49,422 nt of DNA from an uncultured Schlesneria sp. (lineage in GTDB: Bacteria > Planctomycetota > Planctomycetia > Planctomycetales > Planctomycetaceae), in assembly GCA_903904835.1 (NCBI GenBank), contig CAIVEI010000033.1:1-49422 (forward strand), given 5' to 3'. Within the stretch, counting starts at the first letter, position 1; every line of letters begins with the position of its first letter. The position numbers and the translations under genes were made by a program. Below, one piece after another: positions 12,977 through 42,625 of the stretch. A model generated the notes under the pieces. That model did not search any database. It saw only the letters and a program-made list of their open reading frames with translations, and was not told where the DNA came from.

Positions 12977-13816
12977 GTTTGTGGCCGTTTTTGCGTCGAA
13001 GACTTAACCCACTATCGAAAAACACCTTGCGTCGAATCAAAGAGAATGCATGAATAATCCGGGCGAGGATCATCTGCAATGAGAGTGTCGGATTTCAGCA
13101 TCCGATTGTGATTGGCGGGGTTGGGCGGGAAGTTCTGTAGGCCCGCCTGGCTGATTTAAGTGGCTTCAGCGGGGATCATAAACAGCATCAAAGCAACGCA
13201 TATTTTTTCAATCGCTTTTGCAAATCTTTCACATAAGCTCAGGCCCACGGAAGGCTGACAGCGTCTCGAAAGCTCTCCTCAACCCCGTCTCGGTACAACT
13301 CGCGAATGGAGTGCCATCGAGCTTCCTTGCTGGCGAGGTAAGTTGCCAAACCACTTCGGCAGAAATTGCTCAAGGCAATAATTGGTAGCTTTCCATTGGC
13401 GAAAATAAGCGTTGATTTCCCTGATAGCCAATTTCGCAGGTCGAACTTTGGTATCGACTTTGCTCCATACCATGCCGTCCAGTTTCCCGAAATTCTGCGT
13501 TTTTCGGATTGTGCAGGCCCGTTGATCCTCGTCATCATGGATGAAGCGAATTGTCAACGAACGGCGTTAAAATAGGCGGATTCGTCCGTAGTGTAACGAA
13601 TTTTGGACAGATAACAGTTTGCGGACTTTGCGGACTGTATATGGCGATGACTGATGTTTGTTCGAGTTTTTGTGATTTCAAAGATTTGATTAAAGCCTCT
13701 CTTTGACCTTCGGCTTATCATAATTGACGGAATCCCGGCAAATTGCCACACGTGGTTGCCGGACGAAAATTCGACCGAAATGGCTTGGAAACAGTTTTAT
13801 TGAGGGGGGCTCAATT
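12977..13816. other. gene-poor region upstream of the YTV gene
   Basis: This 840-bp stretch has no gene I can support. Three short overlapping open frames occupy 13239-13575: minus 13239-13538, minus 13279-13557 and plus 13366-13575. None has a recognisable motif or a good ribosome-binding site. The base composition is more AT-rich than the flanks near 13570-13740. It may hold regulatory sequence for the YTV protein or a decayed gene. Confidence 0.45.
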
Positions 13817-15169
13817 ATGAAGAATGCGATGGTCAGTGCTTTTGCAGCGCTGGTGATCGCGGTTGCTGCATCACCAGGTACGGCTTTGGCCGGGTGCTAT
13901 TGTGGTGCCGCAACTTACCGGTGTTGCCCAACGGCTTCGTGTCAGCAGTCGTGCTGTTACACGACTCACCGTGTTGAACGGCAGACATGTCAACGAACGG
14001 TCTACGAAACGATTCAGGAGCCGCAGACATATACGGTCAATCGAACCGTCTATGAAACGGCGTACGAGGATGTGACGGAAACACATCAGCGGATGGTCAA
14101 TGAAGTGGCCTATCGAGAACAGCAGTACCAGGTCGCAAGACAAGTCTACGAAACGGCCGATCGTGAAGAACGTTACACCGTCATGAAACCTGTCAGCGAA
14201 ACGTTGTACCGCGATCAGACCTACACGACGCAAAAACAAGTCTGGGAAGAATCGTGTCGCGAAGTCCGCCGTTGCGTCCAGCGACCAGTCACCGAAACGC
14301 TCGAACGGGAATGCCGACAGACCGTCATGCGTCAGCAGACAGAAGTAATTAATCAGGAGCGTTGTTACACGGTCATGCGACCGGTCACGATGTATCGCAC
14401 GGAAAAACAAGATTGCGGCCAGTGGACTCAGCAACAGGTCTATCACCAAGGTCCTTGCTGTCCAAAGATGGTTTGCGGCCCTTGCGGTCCTCAGATCTGC
14501 ATGGTTCAGATGCCCGGCTTCTACACCTGTAAACGAGTCTGGTGCCCGAACATCGTCGAACGACAGATTCCCTGCACGACTTATCAGCCACAAGTTGTGC
14601 GTCAGTCCTGTCCGGTGACGGTCTGCAAGATGGTTCCCGAAACCATCGTGACCAAAGTACCGTACACGGTCTGCCGGATGGTGACCGAGCAGGTTGTCGA
14701 AAAGGTTCCATACAAGACCTGTCGTATCGTCTGCGAACAACACGTGCAGAAGGTTCCGTATCAGGTCTGCCGCATGGTCGCCGAAGAATGTGTTCGCAAG
14801 GTACCTCATCAGGTCTGCCGCACAATCACGGAAACAAAGACCTGCCGAGTTCCTTACACGGTCTGCCGACAAGAACCCTTCACGGTGACCAAGCGAGTCG
14901 CTCGATGCGTACCACGTGAAGTTCAGTCAACCTGTACTCGCATGGTGTCGAAGTGTGTGCCACGCGTAGAAAACTACGAAGTCTGTCGCCTCGTTCCTGA
15001 AACCGTCTGCCCGTCAACCTGCAATTCCTGCGGTTCGGGTGGTTGTGCCTCAGGAAATTGCGGTGTCCCCAAGGACACTCAAGTCGACATGAAGCCCATT
15101 CCCGAGGAATCGGTGCCCGCCTCCGGTAGCCCGATTTCCCACTTCACTCGTCGCCGATTGAGCATCTGA
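13817..15169 (+). CDS. cysteine-rich YTV-type repeat protein, exported
   Basis: 450 residues from the ATG at 13817, which follows a strong GAGGGGGG; the 31-residue upstream extension is spurious. A signal peptide (MKNAMVSAFAALVIAVAASPGTALA) leads into about 20 short repeats. First come Tyr/Glu/Thr-rich ones of the kind YTVxxxVYET, then Cys-rich ones of the kind KVPYxVCRMVxE at about 12-16-residue spacing. A Cys/Gly cluster near 240-270 separates the two halves. Proteins of this type are known from planctomycetes and have been linked to the proteinaceous cell wall, where Cys pairs could cross-link. It is monocistronic with its own terminator. The structural role is inferred from the family, not shown here. 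Confidence 0.85.
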   Translation: MKNAMVSAFAALVIAVAASPGTALAGCYCGAATYRCCPTASCQQSCCYTTHRVERQTCQRTVYETIQEPQTYTVNRTVYETAYEDVTETHQRMVNEVAYREQQYQVARQVYETADREERYTVMKPVSETLYRDQTYTTQKQVWEESCREVRRCVQRPVTETLERECRQTVMRQQTEVINQERCYTVMRPVTMYRTEKQDCGQWTQQQVYHQGPCCPKMVCGPCGPQICMVQMPGFYTCKRVWCPNIVERQIPCTTYQPQVVRQSCPVTVCKMVPETIVTKVPYTVCRMVTEQVVEKVPYKTCRIVCEQHVQKVPYQVCRMVAEECVRKVPHQVCRTITETKTCRVPYTVCRQEPFTVTKRVARCVPREVQSTCTRMVSKCVPRVENYEVCRLVPETVCPSTCNSCGSGGCASGNCGVPKDTQVDMKPIPEESVPASGSPISHFTRRRLSI

Positions 15170-15208
15170 TCGCGGAATTCATTTCGGCCTTGAGCACCCT
15201 CCCTCAAC

Positions 15209-15248
15209 AACGGGACGCAACCACCTGGTTCGCGTCCCGTTTTGTTTT
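15209..15248 (+). terminator. Rho-independent terminator of the YTV gene
   Basis: Stem 15209-15223 pairs with 15226-15241 with one bulged base. The outer ten pairs are perfect (AACGGGACGC), and TTTGTTTT follows. Confidence 0.88.
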
Positions 15249-15377
15249 GAGGCTCACCTTTGAGCGAGAAGCATTTTCGCCGCAGGTGCTTCTAATTTGG
15301 TTTAAATCTCAGAGACTTGCCGAAGTCCGAGCAGATTGCACCTCGAGCAACATTTTAGAAGACGCAGAATCCAGATC

Positions 15378-15405
15378 TTGCTGTTATACCAGTGGCTGGT
15401 ATGAT
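15378..15405 (+). promoter_or_regulatory. higBA promoter with embedded operator
   Basis: A -35-like TTGCTG (15378-15383) and a -10-like TATGAT (15400-15405) are 16 bases apart. Between them and overlapping the -10 lies the inverted repeat ATACCAG-TGG-CTGGTAT (15386-15402). It is 33 bp before the toxin start. The layout is that of an autorepressed toxin-antitoxin promoter where the antitoxin HTH binds the palindrome and blocks RNA polymerase. This is inference from sequence only. Confidence 0.65.
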
Positions 15406-15435
15406 TCTGTCGACGTAGATTGTTGGGAGCATTCG

Positions 15436-15807
15436 ATGCCAACGCCGCCGGGAATCATTGAGACGAGGCCATTTACCCGGATCTGGGACCATTTAGGACT
15501 CAAGGTTGAAGACCTGCTGGCAATGCAAAATGAATGCTTCCTCCAATTGAAATCGGCTCCCGTCATTTCCGGGTGTGCTGGTGCCAGAAAAATGCGTTTT
15601 TCCCCGAAATCAATTGCCTCGGGTAAGAGCGGGGCATTGAGGGTCGTTTTCAAATACTTCGAACAATTTCAGATCGTAATTCAAATTCTCGTGTATCCCA
15701 AAGGTGTGAAAGAGAGCATTACCTCCGAAGACAAGAAAGGGATCGCTCAGGCAATGAGCGTGATCGAATTTGAACTGGAAAGACGCTTCAAGAGGAATTC
15801 GGTTTGA
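15436..15807 (+). CDS. higB: HigB-like RelE-superfamily toxin
   Basis: 123 residues from the ATG at 15436, with GGGAG six bases upstream; the much longer frame from 15190 runs over the terminator and operator and is rejected. The sequence (IIETRPFTRIWDHLGL... LRVVFKYFEQFQIVIQILVYPK... ITSEDKKGIAQAM) resembles the HigB/RelE-type mRNA interferases that I know as the partners of C-terminal-HTH antitoxins. Such toxins cut mRNA in the ribosome A site. The toxin-first gene order and the antitoxin 76 bp downstream fit higBA. The conserved Arg-Lys (ARKMRF) and the late aromatic/basic residues are present. Activity is untested. Confidence 0.8.
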   Translation: MPTPPGIIETRPFTRIWDHLGLKVEDLLAMQNECFLQLKSAPVISGCAGARKMRFSPKSIASGKSGALRVVFKYFEQFQIVIQILVYPKGVKESITSEDKKGIAQAMSVIEFELERRFKRNSV

Positions 15808-15883
15808 CGGTTTCACTGTTCGCTGAAAAAACGGCTGGTTCAATTGTTGAATAGTGAATGCATCAGTGCAAATGGGAGGAATG

Positions 15884-16330
15884 ATGGGTACGAAGAAAGT
15901 GAAAATAACAAACGATGGCGATGTTGTTTTTGAGGGCAAGACCGTAGGTCAACTCATGGTCGAAGGTCTGGCGGAGTTGGCGGGCGATTTCCAGGCGGGC
16001 ATCGATTTGACGGAAAAATACACCTGCCGACAAATTTCGTTAAGACCGGCTGAACAGGTTTGTACGCCCGAGCGAATTATTGCGGCAAGAAAAATCCTCG
16101 GGGCTTCTCAATCATTGTTTGCCAATTTTCTTGGATTTTCAGCGAATACCGTTCGGTCGTGGGAACAGGGGACCTACGAACCGCAACGAGTGGCTCGTTT
16201 GCTGATCGAATACATTCATGAAGATCCAACCTATTGGCGGAAGAAATTTAAGGCTCGTGTCGTTCCAAAGACGCCGAATGCACTCGCGAACAGAAAGCGT
16301 AATCGACCCGGTCAGTCGATGGCGAAATAA
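15884..16330 (+). CDS. higA: HigA-like antitoxin with XRE-type HTH
   Basis: 148 residues from the ATG at 15884, chosen for GGGAGGA four bases upstream; alternatives are ATG 15881, ATG 15872 or GTG 15854. The C-terminal half carries an XRE helix-turn-helix (IIAARKILGASQSLFANFLG, then FSANTVRSWEQGTYEP, about residues 66-105). The N-terminal half probably wraps the toxin. It should neutralise the upstream HigB-like toxin and repress the shared promoter through the palindrome at 15386-15402. The basic tail (NRKRNRPGQ) may add DNA contacts. Confidence 0.82.
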   Translation: MGTKKVKITNDGDVVFEGKTVGQLMVEGLAELAGDFQAGIDLTEKYTCRQISLRPAEQVCTPERIIAARKILGASQSLFANFLGFSANTVRSWEQGTYEPQRVARLLIEYIHEDPTYWRKKFKARVVPKTPNALANRKRNRPGQSMAK

Positions 16331-16391: not shown

Positions 16392-17114
16392 TCAACGAAT
16401 CCGTAACGAGCGACACGTTTCCCCGTAGGTGAATTCAAGTTCGAAAGGAATCATCAGTTCATTCGGCAGGCATAGCGGCAATGTCGGCAGCGCGGCACCA
16501 ATGGCAAGCTCATGTTCCCATGTTTCGAGCCGCCAACGCTGACCGGTTCTCCGGCCTCGACAAGTGGCAGCATAAATCGGACTCCGCGAAATGTCGGATC
16601 GTATCGCGTCGAGTTCACCCAACAGCTCGCCATACAGGTTGGCAGTCCGGTTGGTCACAACATCGACGATCGTGACACGGACATCTTTTTTCAGTAGCGA
16701 TTCACATTTGTTAACGAAAGATTTCCGATTTTCCGTTCGGTCCTTGTTCGATGGACTCACAAGTTTGATTGAGGCCACCAGTCGGAATTCATCCTGAGTG
16801 TAGACGTTGACTTCATACTCGGACGGTTCTGGGAATTCGGTATCGACCAGAATGTTTGGCTTTGCAGGTGTCCATGAGGCGAGCGTCAGGTTCCCCTCAT
16901 CCTCCGAATCGCTCGTCGGACGAGAATCCGATTCTCGCTCGAACGCTGCGATGTCGATCTCCATGGTGCCCCCCAGACGAACACTAGGCTGGGCAATGTA
17001 TTCCTCAGGCAAAAGCGTATTGAGCCTTTGAGCAATCATCATCGGCCAGCCACCGTGAAGTGCTTCCCATTTCAATAACGTCGACGAAGAATGGAAATGA
17101 TCACGGAGCGGCAT
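16392..17114 (-). CDS. DUF4058 family protein (copy 2)
   Basis: 240 residues, ATG at 17114, beginning MPLRDHFHSS like copy 1 (MPLRDHFRPP). Shared blocks are ALHGGWPMMIAQ, LLPEEYIAQP, SEYEVNVYTQ, IKLVSPSNKDR and the C-terminal SYGETCR-like end (here TYGETCRSLRIR; copy 1 has SYEETCRVLRIV). No signal peptide or known catalytic motif. It converges on the antitoxin gene with a 61-bp gap. Function is unknown; the two copies are clearly homologous but well diverged. Confidence 0.85.
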   Translation of the reverse strand: MPLRDHFHSSSTLLKWEALHGGWPMMIAQRLNTLLPEEYIAQPSVRLGGTMEIDIAAFERESDSRPTSDSEDEGNLTLASWTPAKPNILVDTEFPEPSEYEVNVYTQDEFRLVASIKLVSPSNKDRTENRKSFVNKCESLLKKDVRVTIVDVVTNRTANLYGELLGELDAIRSDISRSPIYAATCRGRRTGQRWRLETWEHELAIGAALPTLPLCLPNELMIPFELEFTYGETCRSLRIR

Positions 17115-17321
17115 TTCATAGCTCTCGATGTTTTTTATTCGGATACAAGCTTCGTTTTATCCTAGCTTAAATACGTTTCCGAGGCACCGAAAAGAAATGA
17201 AGTGACGGACAATTGCTTTTTCAGACCTCGCGATTGAGATTCTGTGCCTTTGCATTGGATTTATTCGCAGAAGCCGTTTTCTATATCCGCTAGTCAAACA
17301 GCACTCCATAGCCGAAGACGG

Positions 17322-18218
17322 TCACGAAATTGCAACTTGATTCAGCGAATCGCAGGCTGGCACAACTAAACCACCAGGATTCTGGAGGGTGTTTCTAAGA
17401 GTACCGACAAATTCGCCGGCTTGATATCCGTTGACCAGGCGATGATCGAGTCGAACGAACAAGGGTGCCACGCTTCGAATCACGATCGCGTCCCCTTCGG
17501 CCACTGGACGCATCTCAGCAGGTCCCAGCGTGACGCTGACTCCATACGAGTTTGTTGGAAGACTGCTTGGTTTAAACGAGATCATGGGTGGTGCGTTTGC
17601 AAATCCGAGGTGATTAACAAACGCCCCGCTGCCGTTGATCTCTTCCAATGTCGTGGTGGGAAGCCTGAAGCGATTTGTCAGGAAGAAACCGATTTTTGCC
17701 ATCCGATACACCCATTGCGACCGGAACCATTTCTGCCAGCGGTATCGCCTGTTTTCAGCAGGATTTCCCTTCTTCTGGAGGTTCGCTTCCGTCGCTGCCC
17801 GGACAGCGACGTCTCGCGCTTTTCCCATGAGATAACGGGAAATCTCAACCAGTGACATCTGTTCCGCATGGCGCAAATAGATAACGTTGACTTCGCCCGA
17901 CCGAGTTTCCAGCATTGGCATGGTGATGTGGATGCCGTCATAGGGATGGACGCGTCGACCGACGACGCGACGATTGACCGCAGGATGCTTGTGCATGGCT
18001 TCGACCACAGCTCGGATCAGTACGTGGGCTGTCGAAATAAAAGACCCCGTCTGTCGCTTCTGGTCCGCGACGAATTGCGTCAACGCCTCGGTCTGGATTG
18101 TTGTCCCCCAGATCATTGTCGGATCACAATACGCCGATGCGGTCGCCAGGTAGGTTGTATTGACCCAGCCCAAGTCTTCCAGCGGAACGGAACGGGATTC
18201 TGTCGGCCAGTAATACAC
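17322..18218 (-). CDS. E2/CAT-fold acyltransferase-like protein with HxxxN motif
   Basis: 298 residues from a GTG at 18218 with GAGGAG eight bases upstream. It resembles the catalytic domain of 2-oxoacid dehydrogenase E2 subunits: HVLIRAVVEAMHKHPAVNRR near 65-84, a TMPMLETRSGEVNV stretch, and the active-site block RLDHRLVNGYQAGEFVGTLR at 256-275. There is no lipoyl or peripheral-binding domain, so it is not a normal complex subunit. Catalysis in this fold (E2, CAT, NRPS condensation domains) uses HxxxDG; here it is H259...N263. It is the last gene of a four-gene operon with an ACP and an AMP ligase, so a carrier-bound acyl group is the likely donor. The acceptor is unknown. Confidence 0.8.
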   Translation of the reverse strand: MYYWPTESRSVPLEDLGWVNTTYLATASAYCDPTMIWGTTIQTEALTQFVADQKRQTGSFISTAHVLIRAVVEAMHKHPAVNRRVVGRRVHPYDGIHITMPMLETRSGEVNVIYLRHAEQMSLVEISRYLMGKARDVAVRAATEANLQKKGNPAENRRYRWQKWFRSQWVYRMAKIGFFLTNRFRLPTTTLEEINGSGAFVNHLGFANAPPMISFKPSSLPTNSYGVSVTLGPAEMRPVAEGDAIVIRSVAPLFVRLDHRLVNGYQAGEFVGTLRNTLQNPGGLVVPACDSLNQVAIS

Positions 18219-18232
18219 CTTGAGACTCCTCG

Positions 18233-18487
18233 TTACCGCTGTTGACCCGCGATCCGACTCTCAATCAGCCGTGAAATCGTGGCTGGCGTTTCGAAGACAT
18301 CGGGTGTGATGTCTTCGAATTCCAGGCGGAGACCTAACTCCGTTTCGACAAACACGAGCAGGTCCATCATCATCAACGAATCAATGATGCCTGACTCCTG
18401 TAATTCCGTGTCACCCGCGATAGACGTCTGGCCTGTTGCGGAAACGAGAAATCCGACGATTTTCTGCTGTATCTCGGCGGCGTTCAT
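18233..18487 (-). CDS. stand-alone acyl carrier protein
   Basis: An 84-residue acidic protein of carrier-protein size. The phosphopantetheine serine is S37 in GIIDSLMMMDLLVFVE, followed by the helix III region LEFEDITPDVFETPATI typical of ACP/PCP. Its ATG overlaps the ligase stop (ATGA), which indicates translational coupling, and the acyltransferase begins 14 bases downstream. It probably receives the acyl or aminoacyl group from the ligase. Sequence resembles ACPs of D-alanyl- or fatty-acyl-type ligase systems more than FabD-type fatty acid synthase ACP. No phosphopantetheinyl transferase is in the window. Confidence 0.9.
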   Translation of the reverse strand: MNAAEIQQKIVGFLVSATGQTSIAGDTELQESGIIDSLMMMDLLVFVETELGLRLEFEDITPDVFETPATISRLIESRIAGQQR

Positions 18488-20148
18488 GGATTGCCCCCTT
18501 TCGTAATGGAAGGGACGACGACTTGTCCCGCTCCTGTCATTTTCGATTCTCGTTCGGCGACCTGTGTTAACAGGGGCCGATCGACTTTTAATGAGGAATT
18601 TAACGGCATTGAGTCCAGCAAACGGACGAAACCCGGAACCATGTGTCGTGGCAGTGCCTCACGGCATCTTGAAATGATTTCCGCATGCGTCAGGACATCC
18701 GCCCCAGTCAAAAACAGCGCCAGGCGGGTACCGACCTGGGGGGCTTCGAATGCCACCGCGACCGCCTGGCTGGCCGATAAGACTCGGACCGCAAACTCTT
18801 CCAGGTCGGCTGGATGAACTCGAAATCCCGCAATCTTGACGATCGCGTTTTGACGGCCTCGGTGATAGATCCAGCCTTCACTATCGGTTTCCGCCAGGTC
18901 TCCTGTCAGTAGCCACCCATTGCTGATTTTCTCAGCGGTCGAGGCTTCATCCTGCCAGTAACCCAGCATGACATTCGAACCACGTGCCCGAAGCTCACCT
19001 GTCGTTCCGGTGGCGACTGGATTGCCTGTTTCGTTGACCACTTCCAACTCGACCCCAGGTATGGCCTTGCCGATGCAGCCAGACGGCAGGTTCTGAAACC
19101 GGTCTGGAGGAACATACGCGAGCCGTGCTGTCGCTTCGGTCTGCCCGTACATGAGAAATAGACGAGCCGGCGAAATCCGTTTGGCCAACTCGACTGCCAG
19201 ATCATAAGGTAACGCCCCTCCGGCGACGGCCAGATATCGCAGTGATGGCAATTCGCTTCGGTCGAGCGACGTGCGATCAAGTAACACACGCACGAGGTCT
19301 GGAACGGCGGAAAGGCTCGTCGCCTGGTAAGACTTGATGGCGTTAATCAGGGTTTCAGGGAACAGAGTCGAACCATCGAGAATCAAAGTCGCACCTGCCA
19401 GAAGATGCGACTGTAGTACCGAGTTTCCAAACGCGTGGTAGAACGGCAGAACGCACAGTGGTCGATCCTGCGAATTGATCTCGAGATATTGTTGAATCGA
19501 GGCGGCGTTTGAAATCAGGTTTTGATGGCTGAGCATCACCCCCTTGGGGTCACCAGTCGACCCGGACGTGAAGAAGATCGCAGCCAGACCATTTCCACCC
19601 ACGTTTTGTGCGGGCAATTGATTTATTGAATCGCTGAACGTTCCGTTGAGCGTCACTGAATATGACGGAATCTGTTCGTCCAATGAGGCGGGACGTTTCG
19701 CCGCCGACGCAATCACAACAGTCGACGCTTCTGTCGACTCAATAATTCGCTCCAGCGCCTGACGCTCCATTTTGGGAGGCACAGGAACGACCACTCCGCC
19801 TGCCAGCAATGTCCCGTAGAATGCTGCGATATACTCGAAGCAGTTAGGAAGCACGACCACGACGCGTGCGCCCGGAATAAAGCCGGGACTGGATTGGAGG
19901 GCGATGGCAACTCGCAATGCCGCGATCGACAGGTCGCCGTAGCTCGATTCTGCACCCTTGGTCAAAATGGCCGACTGGTCGACATTCCGACTCGCTGCAC
20001 TCAGAAACTGCATTCCAAGATGGTCAGTCTGGCGCTCGCTGAATTCTATGAAACCTGTCGAGAGACTGGACGTTCTGGTTCCGTCCGCCTTCAGAATCAG
20101 CAGATTTGCAGGAAACCGACGTCCGGTCGACATGTTCGGTAATTCCAT
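18484..20148 (-). CDS. AMP-forming acyl/aminoacyl ligase (ANL superfamily)
   Basis: 554 residues from the ATG at 20148; a second ATG at 20133 is equally plausible. The adenylation motifs are in order: TSGSTGDPKG at 194-203, MYGQTEA at 333-339, TGDLAE at 415-420, the hinge GRQNAIVKIAGFRVHP at 431-446, and the catalytic A10 lysine K521 in SSLKVDR. It activates a carboxylate with ATP and, given the overlapping ACP gene, most likely loads it onto that carrier. I cannot tell a fatty acid from an amino acid substrate by eye. It starts 15 bases after the hydrolase stop, so all four genes form one transcription unit. Confidence 0.9.
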   Translation of the reverse strand: MELPNMSTGRRFPANLLILKADGTRTSSLSTGFIEFSERQTDHLGMQFLSAASRNVDQSAILTKGAESSYGDLSIAALRVAIALQSSPGFIPGARVVVVLPNCFEYIAAFYGTLLAGGVVVPVPPKMERQALERIIESTEASTVVIASAAKRPASLDEQIPSYSVTLNGTFSDSINQLPAQNVGGNGLAAIFFTSGSTGDPKGVMLSHQNLISNAASIQQYLEINSQDRPLCVLPFYHAFGNSVLQSHLLAGATLILDGSTLFPETLINAIKSYQATSLSAVPDLVRVLLDRTSLDRSELPSLRYLAVAGGALPYDLAVELAKRISPARLFLMYGQTEATARLAYVPPDRFQNLPSGCIGKAIPGVELEVVNETGNPVATGTTGELRARGSNVMLGYWQDEASTAEKISNGWLLTGDLAETDSEGWIYHRGRQNAIVKIAGFRVHPADLEEFAVRVLSASQAVAVAFEAPQVGTRLALFLTGADVLTHAEIISRCREALPRHMVPGFVRLLDSMPLNSSLKVDRPLLTQVAERESKMTGAGQVVVPSITKGGNP

Positions 20149-20163
20149 CGATTTGACAGAGAA

Positions 20164-20892
20164 CTACCTGCGCACTGGCAGAGGGGGAAGGGTGCCGATC
20201 ATTGTGGCATCGGAAGATGAAACCATCGCAGGCTGACGCGAAACGACCGCTCCCGTCGCCATCTCACGCATGGCGGTCGTGCTGCCGATTGCAAAATGGT
20301 TTCGCTTTAATTGACTGGCGAACTCGGGAAATTCTTTGACGTCGATGTTGTGGATGATCGTACAAGGACTTTCGGCTTCGACCGGAATTCCTCGAAACAT
20401 GGGGATCATATCGAGCTTGCGTGACGCATAGTAGTTAATGCAATAGTCGACATTTCCGGGTACCGGCGTCCCAAGTGTCGATTCGATCAAGACCATCGTC
20501 TGCACTCCGATACCATACGTCTCGAGTCGTTGGGCAAGTACGCAAGCGGCATCAGCCCCGCTGCTATATCCAACGATGATGACACCACCAGCCATTTTAC
20601 ATCGCTGATGAGCACATGCAATTTTCCTCGCTGTGGCGCCCGCTTCCCAGCCGTAGATAATCGTGGGAGCATATCCGAGGCAGCGAAACTCGTCCGCCAG
20701 CGCATTCGCCCCTGGCCAATATCCAAGTCCCCCCCGAATCAAAATGACGTCTTGTCGACCGCAGCAGTCGGAATGACCGATCGTTCCCTGTGCCTGAGCA
20801 CTGGAAGAGACACAAATCGCTAAAATCGCCAAAAGCAGGAGCCGCCTTAACCTTCCTTCTGTCCGTAAAATCCGGCAAATTAATTCGGCCAT
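20164..20892 (-). CDS. exported alpha/beta hydrolase (VirJ/thioesterase-like)
   Basis: 242 residues from the ATG at 20892; the TTG three codons earlier is less likely. An N-terminal signal peptide (RRLLLLAILAICVSSSAQA) sends it to the periplasm. The nucleophile elbow is GYSSG (108-112, S110), followed by GADAACVLAQRL. An oxyanion-type strand (DVILIRGGLGYWPGAN) and a late HNIDVKEF / RNHFAIG histidine complete a serine hydrolase pattern, similar in style to VirJ-type domains. It is the first gene of the ligase-ACP-acyltransferase operon. Cleavage of an ester or amide of the final product outside the cytoplasm is one possible role (inference). Confidence 0.78.
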   Translation of the reverse strand: MAELICRILRTEGRLRRLLLLAILAICVSSSAQAQGTIGHSDCCGRQDVILIRGGLGYWPGANALADEFRCLGYAPTIIYGWEAGATARKIACAHQRCKMAGGVIIVGYSSGADAACVLAQRLETYGIGVQTMVLIESTLGTPVPGNVDYCINYYASRKLDMIPMFRGIPVEAESPCTIIHNIDVKEFPEFASQLKRNHFAIGSTTAMREMATGAVVSRQPAMVSSSDATMIGTLPPLPVRR

Positions 20893-21520
20893 TTGTCTCA
20901 AACCTTTTTCAGCTCTTTTTTCATCTTCGGTGGAATCTGCCGACCACCACCGGCAAAATCCGCTCGCCCTTGTTCATTTTGATGCCAGCGATTCACGTCA
21001 GTACCGGTCGATGACCTGAAAACACCGCAAAAACGGAATATCTGGTAGTCAATATCATCGGCACTTTAAGCACCTTGACGCGAGACTCATTGTCGCACCA
21101 GACACCGCATCCTGAAAATTCGCTTCAACTTCACGCTTAATCAGTTGGATCTGCTTATTCGGAATGGCAGGAAAACCGGGAGTGATTGCCGCAATGCGTC
21201 CGACACGACCGGATGTTGGATTGATTTCTGGCGGATTAACAGGACCAGACCTCCAAATTCCGCAGAAAAGAGGTGGGTTAATGAGGCGTGCGCCCTTTCG
21301 CCGCAATACATTACGATTGTTGACGAACTTGAAATGGTGTTTTATTGAGGTCCGAAGATTCTGGGTCGTGCCGAGCCTGACTTTGGTCTGGCAGTGCTTT
21401 TCGAACGGCAAATCAAAAAAACGAGAATCTGCGAGTCGACGGAGGCCCCGGCTTCAGTAGAACACCGTTTCCAAAGAAATGGCTGCTGCAGTGTTTGCAA
21501 CTTTCGGCGAGGGATCAGGA
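20893..21520. other. divergent intergenic region between hydrolase operon and dioxygenase
   Basis: 628 bp separate the divergent start codons. A minus-strand open frame (21055-21411, 118 codons) and plus-strand frames over the same bases have no motif I know and no clear ribosome-binding site. The gap is long enough to hold two promoters and a regulator site, but I saw no strong palindrome. Confidence 0.45.
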
Positions 21521-22486
21521 ATGGAGATTAATGTTTCAACACTCGAAGGATTCAACGAGCTTCCACTGGTGGTACAGCCCGTCGATGTGGGGCGGTGTTC
21601 CGCAGAAGATCTTGTTGCATTTATTTCGGATCGACACGAGTGGCTGAAATCGACCTTGCATCGGCACGGCGGAGTCCTCTTTCGAGGGTTCGTGGTTCGT
21701 GAAATTGACGAGTTTCAGCGAGTTTCCCAGGCTGCTGTTCCTGAACTGAAGCCGTACGTGGAAGGCCAATCGCCCAGGACAAAGGTTGCTGACAACGTCT
21801 ACACGTCGACAGAATTTCCGCCCCAATATCGGATCACGCTGCACAATGAACTTTCCTATGCCAAATCTCCTCCGAAACGAATCATTTTTCACTGCCATGT
21901 TCAGCCTGTCGACCGAGGCGAAACTCCGATCGTTGATTGCCGTAAGGTCTATCAGAAAATGGATCGAGAACTGCGAGATCGATTCGAACGGCTTGGCGTC
22001 AAATACGTCAAGACGATGCATGGTCAGGAGCGTGGACTCGGGAAATCCTGGATGGACCATTTCGAGACCAATGACCGAAGTGTTGTCGAAGAATATTTGC
22101 ATGAGAACGACATTGAATATGAATGGTCCGCTAATGGGACCCTGCGAACCTGGTCGATTCGGCCTTCTGTTCAACGCCATCCACTTACGGGCGAAATGCA
22201 TTGGTTCAACCAGGCGAATTTATGGCACGTGACGAATCTTGATGAACGGCACCGTCGACCGTTACTCGATCGTTGTGGCATCGACAATCTTCCAACTCAT
22301 GCTTTTTATGGTGACGGCAGCACGATTCCTGACGAAGATCTGGATCGAGTCAGAGAAGTCCTGTGGAACGAATCGGTGATGTTCCCCTGGCTCCAGGGAG
22401 ATGTCCTCGTCCTCGACAATCACCTCGTCGCGCATGGGCGAAACGCTTATTCTGGTCCACGCAAGATTTTGGTGGCGATGGGTTGA
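21521..22486 (+). CDS. TauD/TfdA-family (SyrP-like) Fe(II)/2-oxoglutarate dioxygenase
   Basis: 321 residues from the ATG at 21521, with GAGGG seven bases upstream. The iron facial triad is H108-x-E110 (LHNELSY) and H305 (DNHLVAHGRN), and the 2-oxoglutarate arginine is R314 in SGPRKI. The HNE form (Glu rather than Asp) and the sequence around HGGVLFRGF and ETPIVDCRKVY resemble the SyrP-like branch, whose members hydroxylate amino acids, some of them carrier-bound. It is divergent from the ligase-ACP operon, so it may modify the same intermediate. The 3' end overlaps the convergent gene by 40 bp. Confidence 0.87.
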   Translation: MEINVSTLEGFNELPLVVQPVDVGRCSAEDLVAFISDRHEWLKSTLHRHGGVLFRGFVVREIDEFQRVSQAAVPELKPYVEGQSPRTKVADNVYTSTEFPPQYRITLHNELSYAKSPPKRIIFHCHVQPVDRGETPIVDCRKVYQKMDRELRDRFERLGVKYVKTMHGQERGLGKSWMDHFETNDRSVVEEYLHENDIEYEWSANGTLRTWSIRPSVQRHPLTGEMHWFNQANLWHVTNLDERHRRPLLDRCGIDNLPTHAFYGDGSTIPDEDLDRVREVLWNESVMFPWLQGDVLVLDNHLVAHGRNAYSGPRKILVAMG

Positions 22487-22770
22487 TTTTTGATTTTGCT
22501 GACGGTCAACACGCCCCAATTTAGGTGAATCGGGCTGATCTTCTCGCGATGTTCCAGATTTGACTTCTCTTGGCCGAAACCACTTTTTCGCCATTCCTCA
22601 GTGACATCAAGCGGACTGGAATCCATTGACAGGTTAAACTGCTTGCCCAGTTCCACTTCGATCAATCGCGAAGGCTTGTCGCCTTTATCCTGTGCCTTAG
22701 AATCTCGCCCGAGTGAAATTCCGGACAACAATGCTCCCGCGAAACTGGTGAACAATGTTCGACGTTTCAT
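22447..22770 (-). CDS. small exported protein, function unknown
   Basis: 107 residues from the ATG at 22770, preceded by GGAAAG. An N-terminal twin-residue signal-like segment (MKRRTLFTSFAGALLSGISLG) suggests export, possibly by Tat. The remainder is polar with no known domain. Its last 40 bases overlap the end of the convergent dioxygenase gene. It is the last gene of the run that starts with larC. The longer frame to 22890 is not supported. Confidence 0.55.
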   Translation of the reverse strand: MKRRTLFTSFAGALLSGISLGRDSKAQDKGDKPSRLIEVELGKQFNLSMDSSPLDVTEEWRKSGFGQEKSNLEHREKISPIHLNWGVLTVSKIKNQPIATKILRGPE

Positions 22771-22825
22771 GCTTCTTTCCGTTTCATGTAGCGGACAAAA
22801 GAAACCATCGTATGAAAACTCGTGT

Positions 22826-23794: not shown

Positions 23795-25129
23795 TCAATG
23801 GTCGTGATCATGGTCATGGTCGTGATCGTGATCATGGTCATGGTCGTGATCGTGGTCGTGGGCACAATCATGATCGTGGTCATGTTCATGTTCGCATTCC
23901 TCGCCGTCATGACCGTGGTCATGATCATGTTCGTCATCGTCGTCATCATCTTCTTCTTCGAGATGAAATGCGAACTGAGCAGCCATATAAACATCCCGCA
24001 ACGGCAGGTCGTGAGCTTTCGCAATTTCGACGCAATCGTCGTATTCGGGTTTGAAAACTGCAGGCTCTTCGTCTCGCCAGCCGACCTTCCCTTTGATCGG
24101 GCCGAAATCGGTTTCGACGGTATAGCCCATCCGCTCACGGATCGAACGTTGGATTCGTTGACGACGGATTCCAAACGTCTGCGTTTCGCTGAACAGGATT
24201 GTTTCGAGCTTCCCGACATCTTCAAGCTTGGAAATCACACTGAGCGTAATCGCAGGGCGGTCTTTCTTCATCTGAATCGGGGTCGTGAAGACATCGAGTG
24301 CCCCGGCGGCGAGCAACTTTCGCTTGGTGTAACCCAGAACTTCTCCTGTGATATCGTCGAGATTTGTTTCCAATAGCATTACGGTGTCGGCCGAACCTTC
24401 GACACCCGTCGTTTCGCCAATAATCAGTCGCAAAACGTTGGCTCGTCCTTCGAGTTCACGCGTTCCTGCTCCATAACCAATCGTTTCGATTGTCATCTCG
24501 GGAAGTGAATCAACGAAGTTACTGACCAGCGTCTTGACGATGGCCGCACCCGTCGGAGTTGTCAGTTCCGCGTCGATCGGAACGTTTGCCAGGGGGACGC
24601 CTTTTAATAGCTCAGCCGTTCCAGGTGTCGGGATCGAACAAACACCATGTGCGATCTTCACTTGTCCTCGGCCGGTCGGAACTCGGCTGCAATACAACTC
24701 TTCCACGTCGAGTAAATCAAAACCGATGGCAGCGGCAACGATATCAACAATTGAATCGATCGCTCCCACTTCATGAAAATGAATCTGATCGACAGTCGTA
24801 CCGTGAACTTTCGCTTCGGCTTCCGCCACAACGTGGAAAATTCGAAGAGCCAGATCGCGCTGATTATCATTCAGCCCTTCCGACCTGTTGATGATCTGAC
24901 GAATATCGCTGAGATGCCGATGAGCGTGCTGTTCGGGATGTTCAACACGAAAATGTTTCGCACGAAATCCACACCGGTCAACTTCCTCAATGTGTAATTT
25001 GACACCAGGGAGACCGAGCGATTCGATGCCGGCATGAAGAATGTCCAGATCAAGTCCTGCATCGATCAGGGCCGCAACCGTCATGTCCCCGCTGATCCCT
25101 GAGGCACAATCCAAATAGGCGATTCGCAT
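23795..25129 (-). CDS. larC: nickel-pincer cofactor biosynthesis protein LarC with His/Asp-rich tail
   Basis: 444 residues from the ATG at 25129 (AGGA nine bases upstream); the open frame continues to 25765 but only as a shadow of argJ. The N-terminal MRIAYLDCASGISGDMTVAA, FHEVGAIDSIVDIV and TTPTGAAIVKTL blocks identify LarC, which inserts nickel into the pyridinium-3,5-bisthiocarboxylate cofactor of lactate racemase-type enzymes. The whole protein is in one frame, unlike the frameshifted Lactobacillus gene. After about residue 390 the tail is E/D-rich and then His/Asp alternating, with about 19 His in all. It may store nickel. LarA, LarB and LarE are not in the window. Confidence 0.93.
   Translation of the reverse strand: MRIAYLDCASGISGDMTVAALIDAGLDLDILHAGIESLGLPGVKLHIEEVDRCGFRAKHFRVEHPEQHAHRHLSDIRQIINRSEGLNDNQRDLALRIFHVVAEAEAKVHGTTVDQIHFHEVGAIDSIVDIVAAAIGFDLLDVEELYCSRVPTGRGQVKIAHGVCSIPTPGTAELLKGVPLANVPIDAELTTPTGAAIVKTLVSNFVDSLPEMTIETIGYGAGTRELEGRANVLRLIIGETTGVEGSADTVMLLETNLDDITGEVLGYTKRKLLAAGALDVFTTPIQMKKDRPAITLSVISKLEDVGKLETILFSETQTFGIRRQRIQRSIRERMGYTVETDFGPIKGKVGWRDEEPAVFKPEYDDCVEIAKAHDLPLRDVYMAAQFAFHLEEEDDDDDDEHDHDHGHDGEECEHEHDHDHDCAHDHDHDHDHDHDHDHDHDHDH
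23798..23860 (-). repeat. (His-Asp)n coding repeat at the larC 3' end
   Basis: 21 codons alternate His and Asp. Both CAT/CAC and GAT/GAC are mixed, so it is not a simple perfect DNA microsatellite. Confidence 0.85.
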
Positions 25130-25406
25130 GCAAAGTTTCCTGAGAAATGATCTGAAAACGGCTGGCGTTGTTTGAGCCAGCATCCGTGGTTGATATTTCG
25201 AGACTGATCGTACCTGGCACAGCCGCGGGCGGAGTCTATCAAGGTTCCCGCGATCCGGTCGAGGGTCACGGTCACGAACTTTTTCGTCTTCTTTACGAAA
25301 CGTCCGTGCACGATAGCCACGAACCATGCCGAAACGGTATTTTAAACGGCTCGTCTCGCACAATCCCTTATCAACATCAAAAACGTCGCAAGGAACGAAC
25401 GCGATT

Positions 25407-26606
25407 ATGACCGATTTGATCCCTCTTCCCGCAGGCTTTTCCACCGCCGGTGTCCGGTGCGGCATCAAGAATAATGCACCCAAACTCGACCTGGCACTCT
25501 TTGTTTCCGATCGCCCCTGCGCTGCAGCCGGTGTCTTCACAACGAACCTGGTGTGCGGAGCTCCCGTCAAGGTGACTCGCGAACGACTTCCACGATCGAC
25601 AGCTCGCGCGGTCGTCATCAATTCGGGCAATTCGAACGCGGCAACGGGAGAACGTGGTATTGCAGACGCAAAGAAAATGACAGCACTGGTTGCCGACCAG
25701 ATTGGAGCAGTGCCCGAAGATGTCCTCGTCGCTTCCACAGGCGTCATCGGACGGTTCTTGCCCATGGATGTGCTGGAAGCGGGAATACCAGACGCCGCGA
25801 AACACCTGTCACATACGCCAGAATCATTCCGCCATGCCGCTCAGGCCATGATGACGACCGACACGTTTCAGAAACAGGCGACGTCAACGCTCGCACTTCA
25901 TGGCAAAGTGATCCGGATCAGTGGTGCATGCAAAGGAGCCGCAATGATCGCTCCAAACATGGCAACAATGCTGTGTGTGATCATGACCGACGCCAAGCTG
26001 AGCCAGGACGACGCAACGACCATGCTGCGACACAGTATTCAAGACTCGTTCAATTGCATCAGTGTCGACGGACACGAGAGCACCAGTGATTCAGTCATCC
26101 TGCTGGCAAACGGGGCATCGGGAGTCACCATCACCACCGCCGAAGAGAAACAGGCGTTCCAACACAAACTCGATGAAGTCGCGATCAAGCTGGCGACAGA
26201 CATCATCCGCGACGCGGAAGGGGCTCATCACTTCGTCGAATTGAACGTCACCGGCGCACGGACGAGAGACGAGGCGTTCAAAATTGCCAAAGCGATTGCC
26301 GACAGTCCCTTGGTAAAAACCGCGATTTGCGGAGCTGATCCAAACTGGGGCAGGATCGTATCGGCAGCCGGTTACGCTGGCGTGCCATTGCTGGAATCGG
26401 ATATGTCGCTCGTTGTAAACGGCTTTTTGCTTTACCAGTCAGGAACGCCGGTTGACTTCGACGCGACTCAAGTTTCAACAAGTCTTCGCGACAATCGAAA
26501 CGTTACCATCGATCTGAAGCTGACTCACGGTCACAAAAACGTCCGATTCTGGACGTGCGACCTGACGAAAGAATATGTCGAATTGAACGCTGATTATACG
26601 ACGTGA
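25407..26606 (+). CDS. argJ: bifunctional ornithine acetyltransferase / N-acetylglutamate synthase ArgJ
   Basis: 399 residues from the ATG at 25407 (AAGGA 11 bases upstream). The autoprocessing site is intact: KGAAMIAPNMATML with Thr187 as the expected nucleophile that splits the alpha and beta chains. The VASTGVIGRFLPM block and the ADPNWGRIVSAAGYAG block are present. The enzyme transfers the acetyl group of N-acetylornithine to glutamate in arginine synthesis; some members can also use acetyl-CoA. No other arg gene is next to it. It is divergent from larC with a 277-bp gap. Confidence 0.95.
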   Translation: MTDLIPLPAGFSTAGVRCGIKNNAPKLDLALFVSDRPCAAAGVFTTNLVCGAPVKVTRERLPRSTARAVVINSGNSNAATGERGIADAKKMTALVADQIGAVPEDVLVASTGVIGRFLPMDVLEAGIPDAAKHLSHTPESFRHAAQAMMTTDTFQKQATSTLALHGKVIRISGACKGAAMIAPNMATMLCVIMTDAKLSQDDATTMLRHSIQDSFNCISVDGHESTSDSVILLANGASGVTITTAEEKQAFQHKLDEVAIKLATDIIRDAEGAHHFVELNVTGARTRDEAFKIAKAIADSPLVKTAICGADPNWGRIVSAAGYAGVPLLESDMSLVVNGFLLYQSGTPVDFDATQVSTSLRDNRNVTIDLKLTHGHKNVRFWTCDLTKEYVELNADYTT

Positions 26607-35017: not shown

Positions 35018-38000
35018 TCAAACCGGTAACATTTCAATTTTTTTTCTCTGAAAAGCGGCAGCCAGCGAAGCATCGGCGACACTTTCACAGCCTTCCATAC
35101 GCGCCACAAGAACCCCGTTCAGATCAATGAACTCAACGTCACACCGAATCATCTGCTCTGGTGTCTCATGCATCCGGATGACAATCCGAACACCGTCTTT
35201 GGGGAATGTTCGCCGGTACTGACGGTAGCTCGCAACAGCACACGGCAGGCACGGCTTGCCACGGAATTCTTGCGACCAGAGGATGATCGCCTGCAATGCC
35301 GAGTCGATGGCAAGGGGATCGGCGAGCCAGCTTCCACGAGCAGGTTCAGACATCCATGACCACGGGCTCGGCGCGGAACGCGAGGTGACAACAATCCCCT
35401 CCGCCGAACACGCTTCGATTGCCGTAATTCCATGTAGCATCGGCCCGTGAAACAACCGCGTTTCATAGGCGGTAGAAACGTTCAGGGAATATCGTCGTTC
35501 GGCCACATGCAAGCTGGGCCGGGGGACCGTGGGATATGACGGAGCCAGTTCCACAAAGCCGCCGGCATGAAGGACGTCGCGTCCGTGGTTTGTTCCGACA
35601 AGTTGAACACGCGCGGTGAAACAGTCGGCATTGCGTACGGATTTTCCAGTCAGCACCTTCAGCAAAATCTGATCGTGACTTCCCAATCGCACCCCTTGAT
35701 ATACCCGCAGGTCATTAAACCCTCGCAATTCAAGGCCGGGGTTTCGATGGATGGCACCGTGTGACAGCCACTCCAAAATCATCGCCACCGGAAAAACGGC
35801 TTTACCTCCAATGACGTGGGATTCGAGGAACGAATACTGGTCCACATCGAGAACTCGTTCAAATGCAAGCTTGAGATCCCCCACAGGCTCATGCTCGTGA
35901 CTTGACTCGGTGACCGGGATGAAAACCTGAGGTGTCACGGCCGCATTGGCTTTTCCTGGAATTGATGCTGGTCGCGATACTCCGTTCGCAGCATGGGTCT
36001 GCGTCGCTGAAGAGCCTGATGGTTTGCTGGTGGCCAGGACAAGCACTTCGACTGGATGGCTATTGGCTTGTTCAAACTCCTGCACCAGCGTTTCCGCGCC
36101 GGCGTCGAGAGGAATCAAACCAACCCCCTCCGAAGCAAACAGTTTCTTCAGCCCACCTTGAACCATTCCTCCATCCCACGGCCCCCAATTGAACGATGCG
36201 ACGCGACATTGCGGATATTCGTTGGCGAACTGCCGAGCCTGTTTATTCAGAACTTCGTTAGCGATCGCATAATCCATTTGACCAACTCGACCGAATCTCG
36301 CCGTATACGAAGAAAAAAGTCCCAGGACTTTCAGTTGTGTCGGATCGACACTATCCAGTAGCGATTTCAGTCCGGAAATCTTGGTTTGATAGACACGTTC
36401 AAACTGTTCCCGTGTCTTGTCTTCGATCTTTTGATCGGCCAATACGCCCGCGCCATGGATAATACCACGGATCGGTCCGTGTTCGCGTTGAATTGGAGCC
36501 AGCAGCGTTCGAACCGCATTGGAATTTCGAACATCGACCGAATGGTAGGAAACGGAAATCCCCAACGAATAGAGTCGATAAAGCTGCCGTGCAATGTCCC
36601 GACCCGCCGTAATCTGCTCTAACTGGATGGCAATCGATTTCGGTGTCGTCCCGGCTGGCGCCCGTGCGATCAGGCCCTGCTTGATTTCAGCGTCGTTTGT
36701 CAGGCAGGACATCCAGTCAGGTTCTGGGGTCGGTTCAGGACTTCGGCCAAGAATGACCAGCCGCGGACGCCATGCTTTGGCAATGGCAAATGCCGCTTCG
36801 GCGGTGACTCCACGCGCTCCGCCGGTGATCACTACGACGTCTCCGGGAGCGATCGGAAGACTCCCTTGCTGACCTGCCAGCGGAACTTCGATCGATTCCA
36901 AACAGGAGCTACCACTTGGAGTGATCCCTACTTCGACAGGACCTTGATGAAGAAGTTCTTCGACGAACATCGCTGCGGCAACGTGGCTTGCAGTCCAGTC
37001 AGGGCTGATATCAAACGCTCTGGAAATGACTTCTGGCCATTCGAGCGCTGCACATTTTGCCAGACCAGCAAGCCCCCCAGAAACAGGGTCTTCCAACTGT
37101 CGATTCGTTTCGAAGCCGAAGTGGCCATCCAATCGCGACAAGGTTGCAAACAACGTCGCCGTCGACTGGCTATTGCGACGTAGGGTCGGCCCAACGTTTT
37201 GCAGCCATTCAACCGATTTCCAGAGTTGTTGCTCAGACATTCCTTGAATGGCAGAAACAACAATCAACCCGGCTAACTTTGACGACTCCTGCGGCGGCAC
37301 GGGGTCCGTGAGATTGACGATTCGCGCTTGAAAACCACGATCAGACAATTCGTTCGCGATCTGGCTCGAAAGATCAGAGCCATCCGCTGTAACCCAGATC
37401 TCGCTACCTGGCATCAGGCGAATCTTCGCACGGTTCGCGGCGATGGCGATCGGCGCACAACGTACGATGCTGCGATTGATCCGGGTATCGGTGGTTAATG
37501 TGCGAGACGCTTGAGAATTGGTTGCAGGCGGCGTTGTATGCTTCGAGGTTTGCAATTCGGAATTGGAAACGCGAGCTGCGGAAGCGGTCGGTGTTTTTGT
37601 CGTTCTGGCATCTGCAAGCGTAACGACGTCTCTTAACGTGTGCAGCGCACCCAGCTCTTCCGGCTGGAATGCGGGAAGATTGGGAACCCGTTCCTGTAAC
37701 GCAGACAAGATCTCGACCCGTTTGATCGAATCGATTCCAAGATCATGATCGAGGCTCATGTCGAGATTCAGCATTTCCGTTGGATAGCCGGTCTTCTCGG
37801 AGACCACTTCCAGGACGACTGGTCCCAATTCGCTGCGGCCCTGGCTGACGGTGTGGGCCTGACTCTGGTCAGGAGTATTATTAACAACACTCGGAACGTT
37901 ATTAGCAAAGGAGTCCGCCGCAGCAGCGTGTGATGCTCCTGAGGAACGGGCATCCGCCAGAGTGACGACATCCTTCAGCGTGTGTAACGCCCCCAGTTCT

Positions 38001-42553: not shown

Positions 42554-42625
42554 GCGATTTTATGTGACTTAAAGGACTTATGTGACTTCGAAAAATGGTC
42601 CACTGGAACTCAAATGTCGTTGAAA

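What the first reader, a model, noticed from the sequence alone, without database searches (positions are those of the whole stretch)
17322..22486. Candidate minimal carrier-protein pathway: secreted hydrolase, AMP ligase, ACP, E2/CAT-fold acyltransferase, plus divergent SyrP-like dioxygenase
The sequence shows four tightly packed minus-strand genes (15-bp gap, ATGA overlap, 14-bp gap). Each step fits a role: activate a carboxylate, load an ACP, transfer the group, and hydrolyse outside the membrane. The divergent 2-oxoglutarate dioxygenase is of a branch known to hydroxylate amino acids, sometimes on carrier proteins. E2, CAT and NRPS condensation domains share one fold, so a free E2-like protein could act as a one-domain condensing enzyme. 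I do not recall this combination as a described pathway.
Basis: partly seen in the sequence, partly recalled or inferred. Interest (0 to 1): 0.7.

Follow-up and report, generated by a model that had tools for sequence, protein, structure and literature searches.

The report
Planctomycete carrier-protein acyl-transfer gene cassette
A recurring set of planctomycete genes appears to activate an unknown acid, hang it on a small carrier protein and pass it on with an enzyme remodelled from the core of the pyruvate dehydrogenase complex; no product is known.

Summary
All five genes are real at the stated places. Outside the window lies a further likely member, a methyltransferase: 10 of 119 related genomes have it, all 10 are E2-positive, and in five of them, this genome included, it is on another contig. 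The exported hydrolase is an accessory (5 of 20 loci).

The E2-like proteins form a discrete family apart from true E2s: catalytic His kept, Ser/Thr of FTI[ST]N lost, a helical insertion gained, no lipoyl domain. The ligase lacks the Asp that binds alpha-amino groups, so amino-acid loading is unlikely.

Best reading: a Dlt/Alm-like ligase–carrier–transferase relay with an E2-lineage enzyme as transferase, and hydroxylation and methylation as tailoring. Every reaction is inferred; substrate, acceptor and product are unknown. Ten paper searches found no such pathway.

The parts
17322..18218 (-). Free E2/CAT-fold acyltransferase, 298 aa, GTG start; no lipoyl domain; DHR catalytic His259, Asn263; helical insertion of about 47 residues between about 130 and 185
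18233..18487 (-). Free acyl/peptidyl carrier protein, 84 aa, DSL serine
   Evidence: PF00550 23.4 bits; DltC, AsbD and AmcB models match below their cut-offs; [DE]SL serine in 19 of 19 aligned
18484..20148 (-). AMP-forming acyl ligase, 554 aa; closest curated model TIGR03098 (below cut-off); Ala239 in place of Asp235 of amino-acid A domains
   Evidence: PF00501 254.8 bits; alignments
20164..20892 (-). Alpha/beta hydrolase, 242 aa from ATG 20892; N-terminal hydrophobic stretch ending AQA read by eye as an export signal; Ser113 and His202 (numbered from TTG 20901) invariant in 12 homologues
20893..21478 (.). Divergent intergenic region between hydrolase and dioxygenase genes; no sigma-70-like match in it
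   Evidence: 4 promoter-like sites found in 16800-22800 (mean of shuffles 4.4); none lies in this region
21479..22486 (+). TauD-family Fe(II)/2-oxoglutarate dioxygenase (ORF 335 aa; true start may be ATG 21521); HNE...H metal triad
   Evidence: PF02668 143.3 bits; HNELS and DN..VAHGR in 13 of 13

Best explanation
The cassette is an acyl relay. (1) The ligase activates a carboxylic acid without an alpha-amino group as its acyl-AMP and (2) loads it on the holo-ACP. (3) The E2-lineage enzyme takes the acyl group from the ACP: the phosphopantetheine arm enters the tunnel that CoA uses in true E2s, the acceptor enters the tunnel once used by lipoyl-lysine, and His259 acts as general base, giving an ester or amide. 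(4) The dioxygenase hydroxylates, and the methyltransferase methylates, the acyl group or the product; hydroxylation followed by O-methylation is the simplest order. (5) In some species an MprF-like transferase adds an aminoacyl group, and in others an exported hydrolase trims or turns over the product, which would make the product an envelope lipid or a secreted lipid-like molecule. Shown: the genes, motifs, predicted folds and co-inheritance. Inferred: every reaction. Least sure: step 5.
For: Ligase and ACP with E2 in 20 of 20 loci of the family. Of 119 relatives, 14 have E2; 8 have a dioxygenase of 61% identity or more, all 8 beside ligase-ACP-E2; 10 have the methyltransferase at E <= 1e-30, all 10 in E2-positive genomes, in 5 of them on another contig. 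Hypergeometric p 9e-12 for the methyltransferase and 4e-9 for the dioxygenase, not corrected for phylogeny; within the genus (9 of 15 E2-positive) the methyltransferase is in 8, all E2-positive, p 0.0014, and the hydrolase in exactly the same 9, p 0.0002. Dioxygenase and methyltransferase are adjacent on one strand in 6 loci. Gene distances correlate (ligase-E2 0.85, ligase-ACP 0.88, dioxygenase-methyltransferase 0.955). DHR invariant in 13 of 13 E2-like proteins. The methyltransferase's best solved matches are S- and O-methyltransferases, weakly (E 7e-5 and worse). An MprF-like gene follows E2 directly in 5 loci.
Against: No reaction was tested. The Ser/Thr before Asn in FTI[ST]N, thought to stabilise the transition state in true E2s (role recalled; cf. 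the 1dpb title), is Val or Ile in 19 of 19 family members, so the chemistry may be weaker or different. The ligase is as close to acyl-CoA ligase models as to carrier-loading ones. Five more distant E2-like proteins in the phylum have no ligase or ACP match beside them. G051 keeps a nearly full-length ligase with no E2. Seven of the 20 loci lack a full dioxygenase; in the six of these that belong to the 119 relatives none is found elsewhere at E <= 1e-60, and four of the six have no methyltransferase either, so tailoring is optional. The dioxygenase family is wider than the cassette (1693 proteins at E <= 1e-10, some cyanobacterial). The insertion is basic but no more amphipathic than helices of true E2s, so it does not support membrane binding.
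Confidence: 0.5

Rival explanations
1. Amino-acid pathway: the ligase is a free adenylation domain that loads an amino acid, the dioxygenase beta-hydroxylates it on the carrier as SyrP does, and the E2-like protein condenses it like a one-domain NRPS condensation enzyme.
For: The ligase's best solved relatives are NRPS adenylation domains (LgrA, 232 bits summed over two domains). Among solved carrier proteins the ACP's second to fifth matches are PltL and D-alanyl carriers; its best NCBIfam match is DltC, below cut-off.
Against: The Asp235 position is Ala in 13 and Ser in 1 of 14 ligases but Asp in 6 of 6 A domains of the same genome. In phmmer's own alignment to LgrA that Asp falls opposite Gly241 instead, but no Asp occurs anywhere in the motif PFYHAFGNSVLQSH. 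The best NCBIfam model is an acyl ligase, TIGR03098.
Confidence: 0.13
2. CoA route: the ligase makes an acyl-CoA, the E2-like enzyme uses it as E2s and CAT do, and the ACP serves a separate step.
For: E2 and CAT both use CoA (recalled) and are the closest folds; the ligase matches CoA-ligase models well.
Against: The ACP gene lies next to the ligase gene in 20 of 20 loci (4-bp overlap in the window) and its distances follow the ligase's (r 0.88, 19 loci).
Confidence: 0.17
3. Fatty-acid signal pathway: a long-chain acid is loaded and joined to an amine or alcohol to give a diffusible lipid signal, and the exported hydrolase degrades or matures it.
For: Hydrolase fold close to esterases, lipases and thioesterases; the ligase matches long-chain-acid ligase models.
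Against: Chain length was not determined; the hydrolase is missing beside 15 of 20 cassettes.
Confidence: 0.15
4. No joint pathway: the genes lie together by chance or through a shared genomic slot.
For: In genus g38 they share one chromosomal slot; gene order varies between genera.
Against: Orders and neighbours differ between genera while the set persists, and the methyltransferase tracks it even on other contigs.
Confidence: 0.05

Closest known systems
DltA-DltC-DltB/D (D-alanylation) and AlmE-AlmF-AlmG (lipid A glycylation)
   Same: Separate AMP ligase, free carrier protein and separate transferase (described in passages of PMC12930378); the ACP's best NCBIfam match is DltC, below cut-off
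   Different: The transferase is E2/CAT-fold; the ligase lacks the amino-group Asp; dioxygenase and methyltransferase are added
2-oxoacid dehydrogenase E2 catalytic core (PF00198)
   Different: No lipoyl or subunit-binding domain found, Ser/Thr lost, helical insertion, separate clade (support 100/99, with long branches), ligase and ACP as neighbours
NRPS condensation domains
   Same: Share the CAT fold and act on carrier proteins (recalled)
   Different: Motif here is DHRxxNG, not HHxxxDG (recalled); one domain only; sequence kinship is with E2
Exosortase-A-linked acyl ligase TIGR03098
   Same: Closest curated ligase model, 310.8 bits
   Different: Its cut-off is 592.35; exosortase genes were not searched for
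Isonitrile clusters (ScoA-E, Rv0097-0101; recalled)
   Same: Acyl ligase, ACP, hydrolase/thioesterase and TauD-type oxidase together (recalled)
   Different: No NRPS gene seen in the cassette; none of the 12 solved matches to the dioxygenase at E <= 1 is labelled ScoE, which does not settle it
Stieleriacine pathway of planctomycetes
   Same: Planctomycete acylated metabolite
   Different: Proposed genes are N-acyl amino acid synthase, ThiF-family, nitroreductase-family and methyltransferase genes (passages of PMC12479983)

Membership tests
2-oxoacid dehydrogenase E2 | E2/CAT catalytic fold | tested here: met
   predicted model against solved structures
2-oxoacid dehydrogenase E2 | DHR catalytic histidine | tested here: met
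   invariant in 13 of 13
2-oxoacid dehydrogenase E2 | Ser/Thr before Asn in FTI[ST]N | tested here: not met
   Val 18, Ile 1 of 19 family members; Ser/Thr in 10 of 10 alignable canonical E2s (12 loci tried: one gave no ORF over 350 aa, one did not align)
2-oxoacid dehydrogenase E2 | lipoyl and subunit-binding domains | tested here: not met
   298 aa, only PF00198 found
NRPS condensation domain | HHxxxDG motif (recalled) | tested here: not met
   DHRLVNG in the window
NRPS condensation domain | two-lobed condensation-domain fold | tested here: inconclusive
   not among the 50 rows shown
Dlt/Alm systems | separate ligase and carrier protein genes | tested here: met
   20 of 20 loci
Dlt/Alm systems | transferase of DltB/DltD or AlmG type | tested here: not met
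   the cassette's transferase is PF00198; no DltB, DltD or AlmG search of the whole genome was made
Amino-acid adenylation domain | Asp235 that binds the amino group (recalled role) | tested here: not met
   Ala 13, Ser 1 of 14; Asp in 6 of 6 A domains of the same genome
Acyl/peptidyl carrier protein | phosphopantetheine serine | tested here: met
   19 of 19 aligned; the twentieth, L114, was seen by tblastn only
Fe(II)/2-oxoglutarate TauD family | Hx[DE]...H metal triad | tested here: met
   HNE and distal His in 13 of 13
SyrP-type beta-hydroxylase | grouping with SyrP and action on aminoacyl-carrier | not tested
   no SyrP sequence was at hand
Alpha/beta hydrolase | fold with Ser nucleophile and His | tested here: met
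Alpha/beta hydrolase | acid of the catalytic triad | tested here: inconclusive
   no Asp or Glu is invariant; Glu140 and Asp164 nearly so
TIGR03098 exosortase-A ligase | score above 592.35 bits | tested here: not met
   310.8 bits

The most novel reading that the evidence does not exclude
The catalytic core of a 2-oxoacid dehydrogenase E2 has been recruited as a stand-alone, carrier-protein-dependent condensing enzyme, an E2-derived counterpart to NRPS condensation domains, at the heart of an undescribed planctomycete natural-product or envelope-lipid pathway with dioxygenase and methyltransferase tailoring.
Probability: 0.45. Interest if true: 0.75.

Novelty: new variant of a known kind. Interest (0 to 1): 0.6.

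Why it matters
It would show a route by which a central-metabolism enzyme became a synthetic acyltransferase working on carrier proteins, give a small (about 300-residue) condensing enzyme, and define a genome-minable pathway in a phylum whose chemistry is little known. The core is small enough to rebuild in vitro, so the claim is directly testable.

Tried and rejected
Stieleriacine pathway: rejected, different genes. Isonitrile (ScoE) relation: none of 12 solved matches is labelled ScoE; not settled. Ornithine-lipid OlsHI ACP: 20.9 bits against a cut-off of 130; a paper search with OlsH gave none. Link to the PfaA/PfaD synthase at 35-44 kb: in the 23 loci the PfaA query gave one weak match (L089, E 1.7e-5) and in the 12 further loci none, so it is taken as a neighbour only. 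Membrane-binding helix in the E2 insertion: hydrophobic moment not above that of true E2 helices, dropped. MprF-like gene as a core member: homologues in 22 of 119 genomes, 10 of the 14 E2-positive ones among them, so only its adjacency in 5 loci counts.

Rows left out of the counts: the five distant E2-like matches L117-L121 (E 1e-21 to 2e-33), which have no ligase or ACP match beside them; two of the five had a neighbour annotated (kinase in L117, glycosyltransferase in L118). L122 (G039), a 43% dioxygenase without E2, is not counted as cassette. L116 has an E2-like ORF whose second half is replaced by the end of the MprF-like gene; it is counted among the 20 loci and was in the distance correlations, but was left out and the tree. 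In L087 and L078 only pieces of the dioxygenase were seen. The ligase alignment took 14 ligases, L084 of a genome without E2 among them, and left out L071, L076 and those of L111-L116.

Shared contig lengths in the protein listings (capped lists): dioxygenase-E2 10 in common, 0.57 on average when lengths are shifted; only suggestive.

Ten paper searches gave no description of this gene set; the library lacks most subscription papers. Papers: passages seen of PMC12479983, PMC11631085 and PMC12930378; all others only as search listings.
Full report
Observation. The window is contig C33 of an 8.18-Mb, 211-contig genome; the three nearest loci found in genome contigs carry the name Schlesneria in their record titles. 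The hydrolase probably starts at ATG 20892 and the dioxygenase possibly at ATG 21521.

Of 119 related genomes, 26 have a ligase match at E <= 1e-60; 15 of these match at 47% identity or more, and 14 of the 15 have the E2-like gene. The profile search for E2 in the same 119 finds exactly these 14. In all 20 loci of the family that were fetched (14 + 6), ligase and ACP lie with the E2-like gene. In L075 the E2 gene comes first, and in L081 it is 1.8 kb away across other ORFs. The five distant E2-like loci have no such neighbours.

The dioxygenase is beside the cassette in 13 of 20 loci, divergent in ten and co-directional in three. In the 119 relatives it occurs at E <= 1e-60 in nine; eight have 61% identity or more and are all beside ligase-ACP-E2; the ninth, 43%, is without E2. 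The hydrolase is beside the cassette in five loci (window, L070, L071, L072, L075) and present at E <= 1e-10 in 13 of 119 genomes, nine of them E2-positive.

A hidden member. A methyltransferase lies beside the cassette in ten loci, in six of them as a same-strand pair with the dioxygenase. A search of the 119 relatives finds it in ten, all E2-positive, including all eight dioxygenase genomes; in G000, G001, G002, G005 and G070 it is on another contig than the cassette. In the window's own genome it is on C200. These are draft assemblies, so 'another contig' sets only a minimum distance; for G070 the cassette contig is short. Still, a gene that is not a neighbour cannot ride along by position, and this is the strongest evidence for one pathway. 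Counts are not corrected for phylogeny: p 9e-12 overall, 0.0014 inside the genus. In five loci (L080, L112-L115) a gene of the MprF C-terminal transferase family follows E2 (grouped; two of the five scanned). In G070 such a gene lies next to the methyltransferase. Relatives of that gene are widespread (22 of 119), so only the adjacency counts.

The ligase. It has the AMP-binding motifs and invariant Lys521 and is nearest to TIGR03098, PRK06187, PRK08316 and the amino-acid adenylation model, all below cut-off. Aligned with six adenylation domains of the same genome, Ala239 stands where all six have Asp; in 14 ligases the residue is Ala in 13 and Ser in one, the latter from a genome without E2. 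Pairwise phmmer shifts this Asp onto Gly241, but the motif holds no Asp at all. Amino acids are therefore unlikely substrates; which acid is used cannot be said.

Mechanism. A ligase, a free carrier and a separate transferase make the same three-part relay as DltA-DltC-DltB/D and AlmE-AlmF-AlmG (passages of PMC12930378), but here with an E2-lineage transferase. In true E2s CoA and lipoyl-lysine enter from opposite sides (recalled); a carrier's phosphopantetheine arm is chemically that of CoA, so a switch from CoA to ACP is plausible. The pairing of dioxygenase and methyltransferase suggests hydroxylation then methylation. All reactions are inference.

Verdict. A real, recurring gene set for which I found no description. 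The core is ligase-ACP-E2; dioxygenase and methyltransferase are frequent partners; hydrolase and MprF-like transferase are lineage accessories. It is a new variant of the ligase-carrier-transferase kind; that an E2 core became a carrier-dependent condensing enzyme would be the striking part if shown.

Noticed in passing
35018-44308 (-): PfaA-type iterative synthase (2511 aa; KS, AT, four carrier domains, KR, dehydratase-like domain) with a PfaD-like gene beside it.
   Followed up: partly
23795-25765 (-): LarC-like nickel-insertion protein (named by eye) whose C-terminus is a run of His, Asp and Glu; the ORF also has a long upstream stretch that is probably not coding.
   Followed up: no
15190-15807 and 15854-16330 (+): Two ORFs that by eye look like a HigB/HigA-type toxin-antitoxin pair; the second has no Pfam match at E <= 0.01.
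   Followed up: no
13724-15169 (+): 481-aa Cys- and Tyr-rich repetitive ORF, 97.5-97.9% identical in L070 and L072, more alike than the cassette genes beside it.
   Followed up: no
L085:7581-12082, L087:4928-9480: Ligases only 33-34% identical to the window's in tblastn stand with an ACP and a lactate-racemase (LarA)-like gene, and in L085 with a GNAT gene: another carrier relay, perhaps for hydroxy acids.
   Followed up: partly
L117, L118, L121: Other free E2-like proteins with DHR in different contexts: a protein-kinase gene next door in L117, a glycosyltransferase gene nearby in L118.
   Followed up: partly
L116:7793-8644: An E2-like ORF whose second half is replaced by the end of the neighbouring MprF-like gene, as if a deletion had joined them in nature.
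   Followed up: no
L078:7670-7996: Short piece of a dioxygenase gene near the end of a contig, beside a ligase-ACP-E2 set in G070.
   Followed up: no
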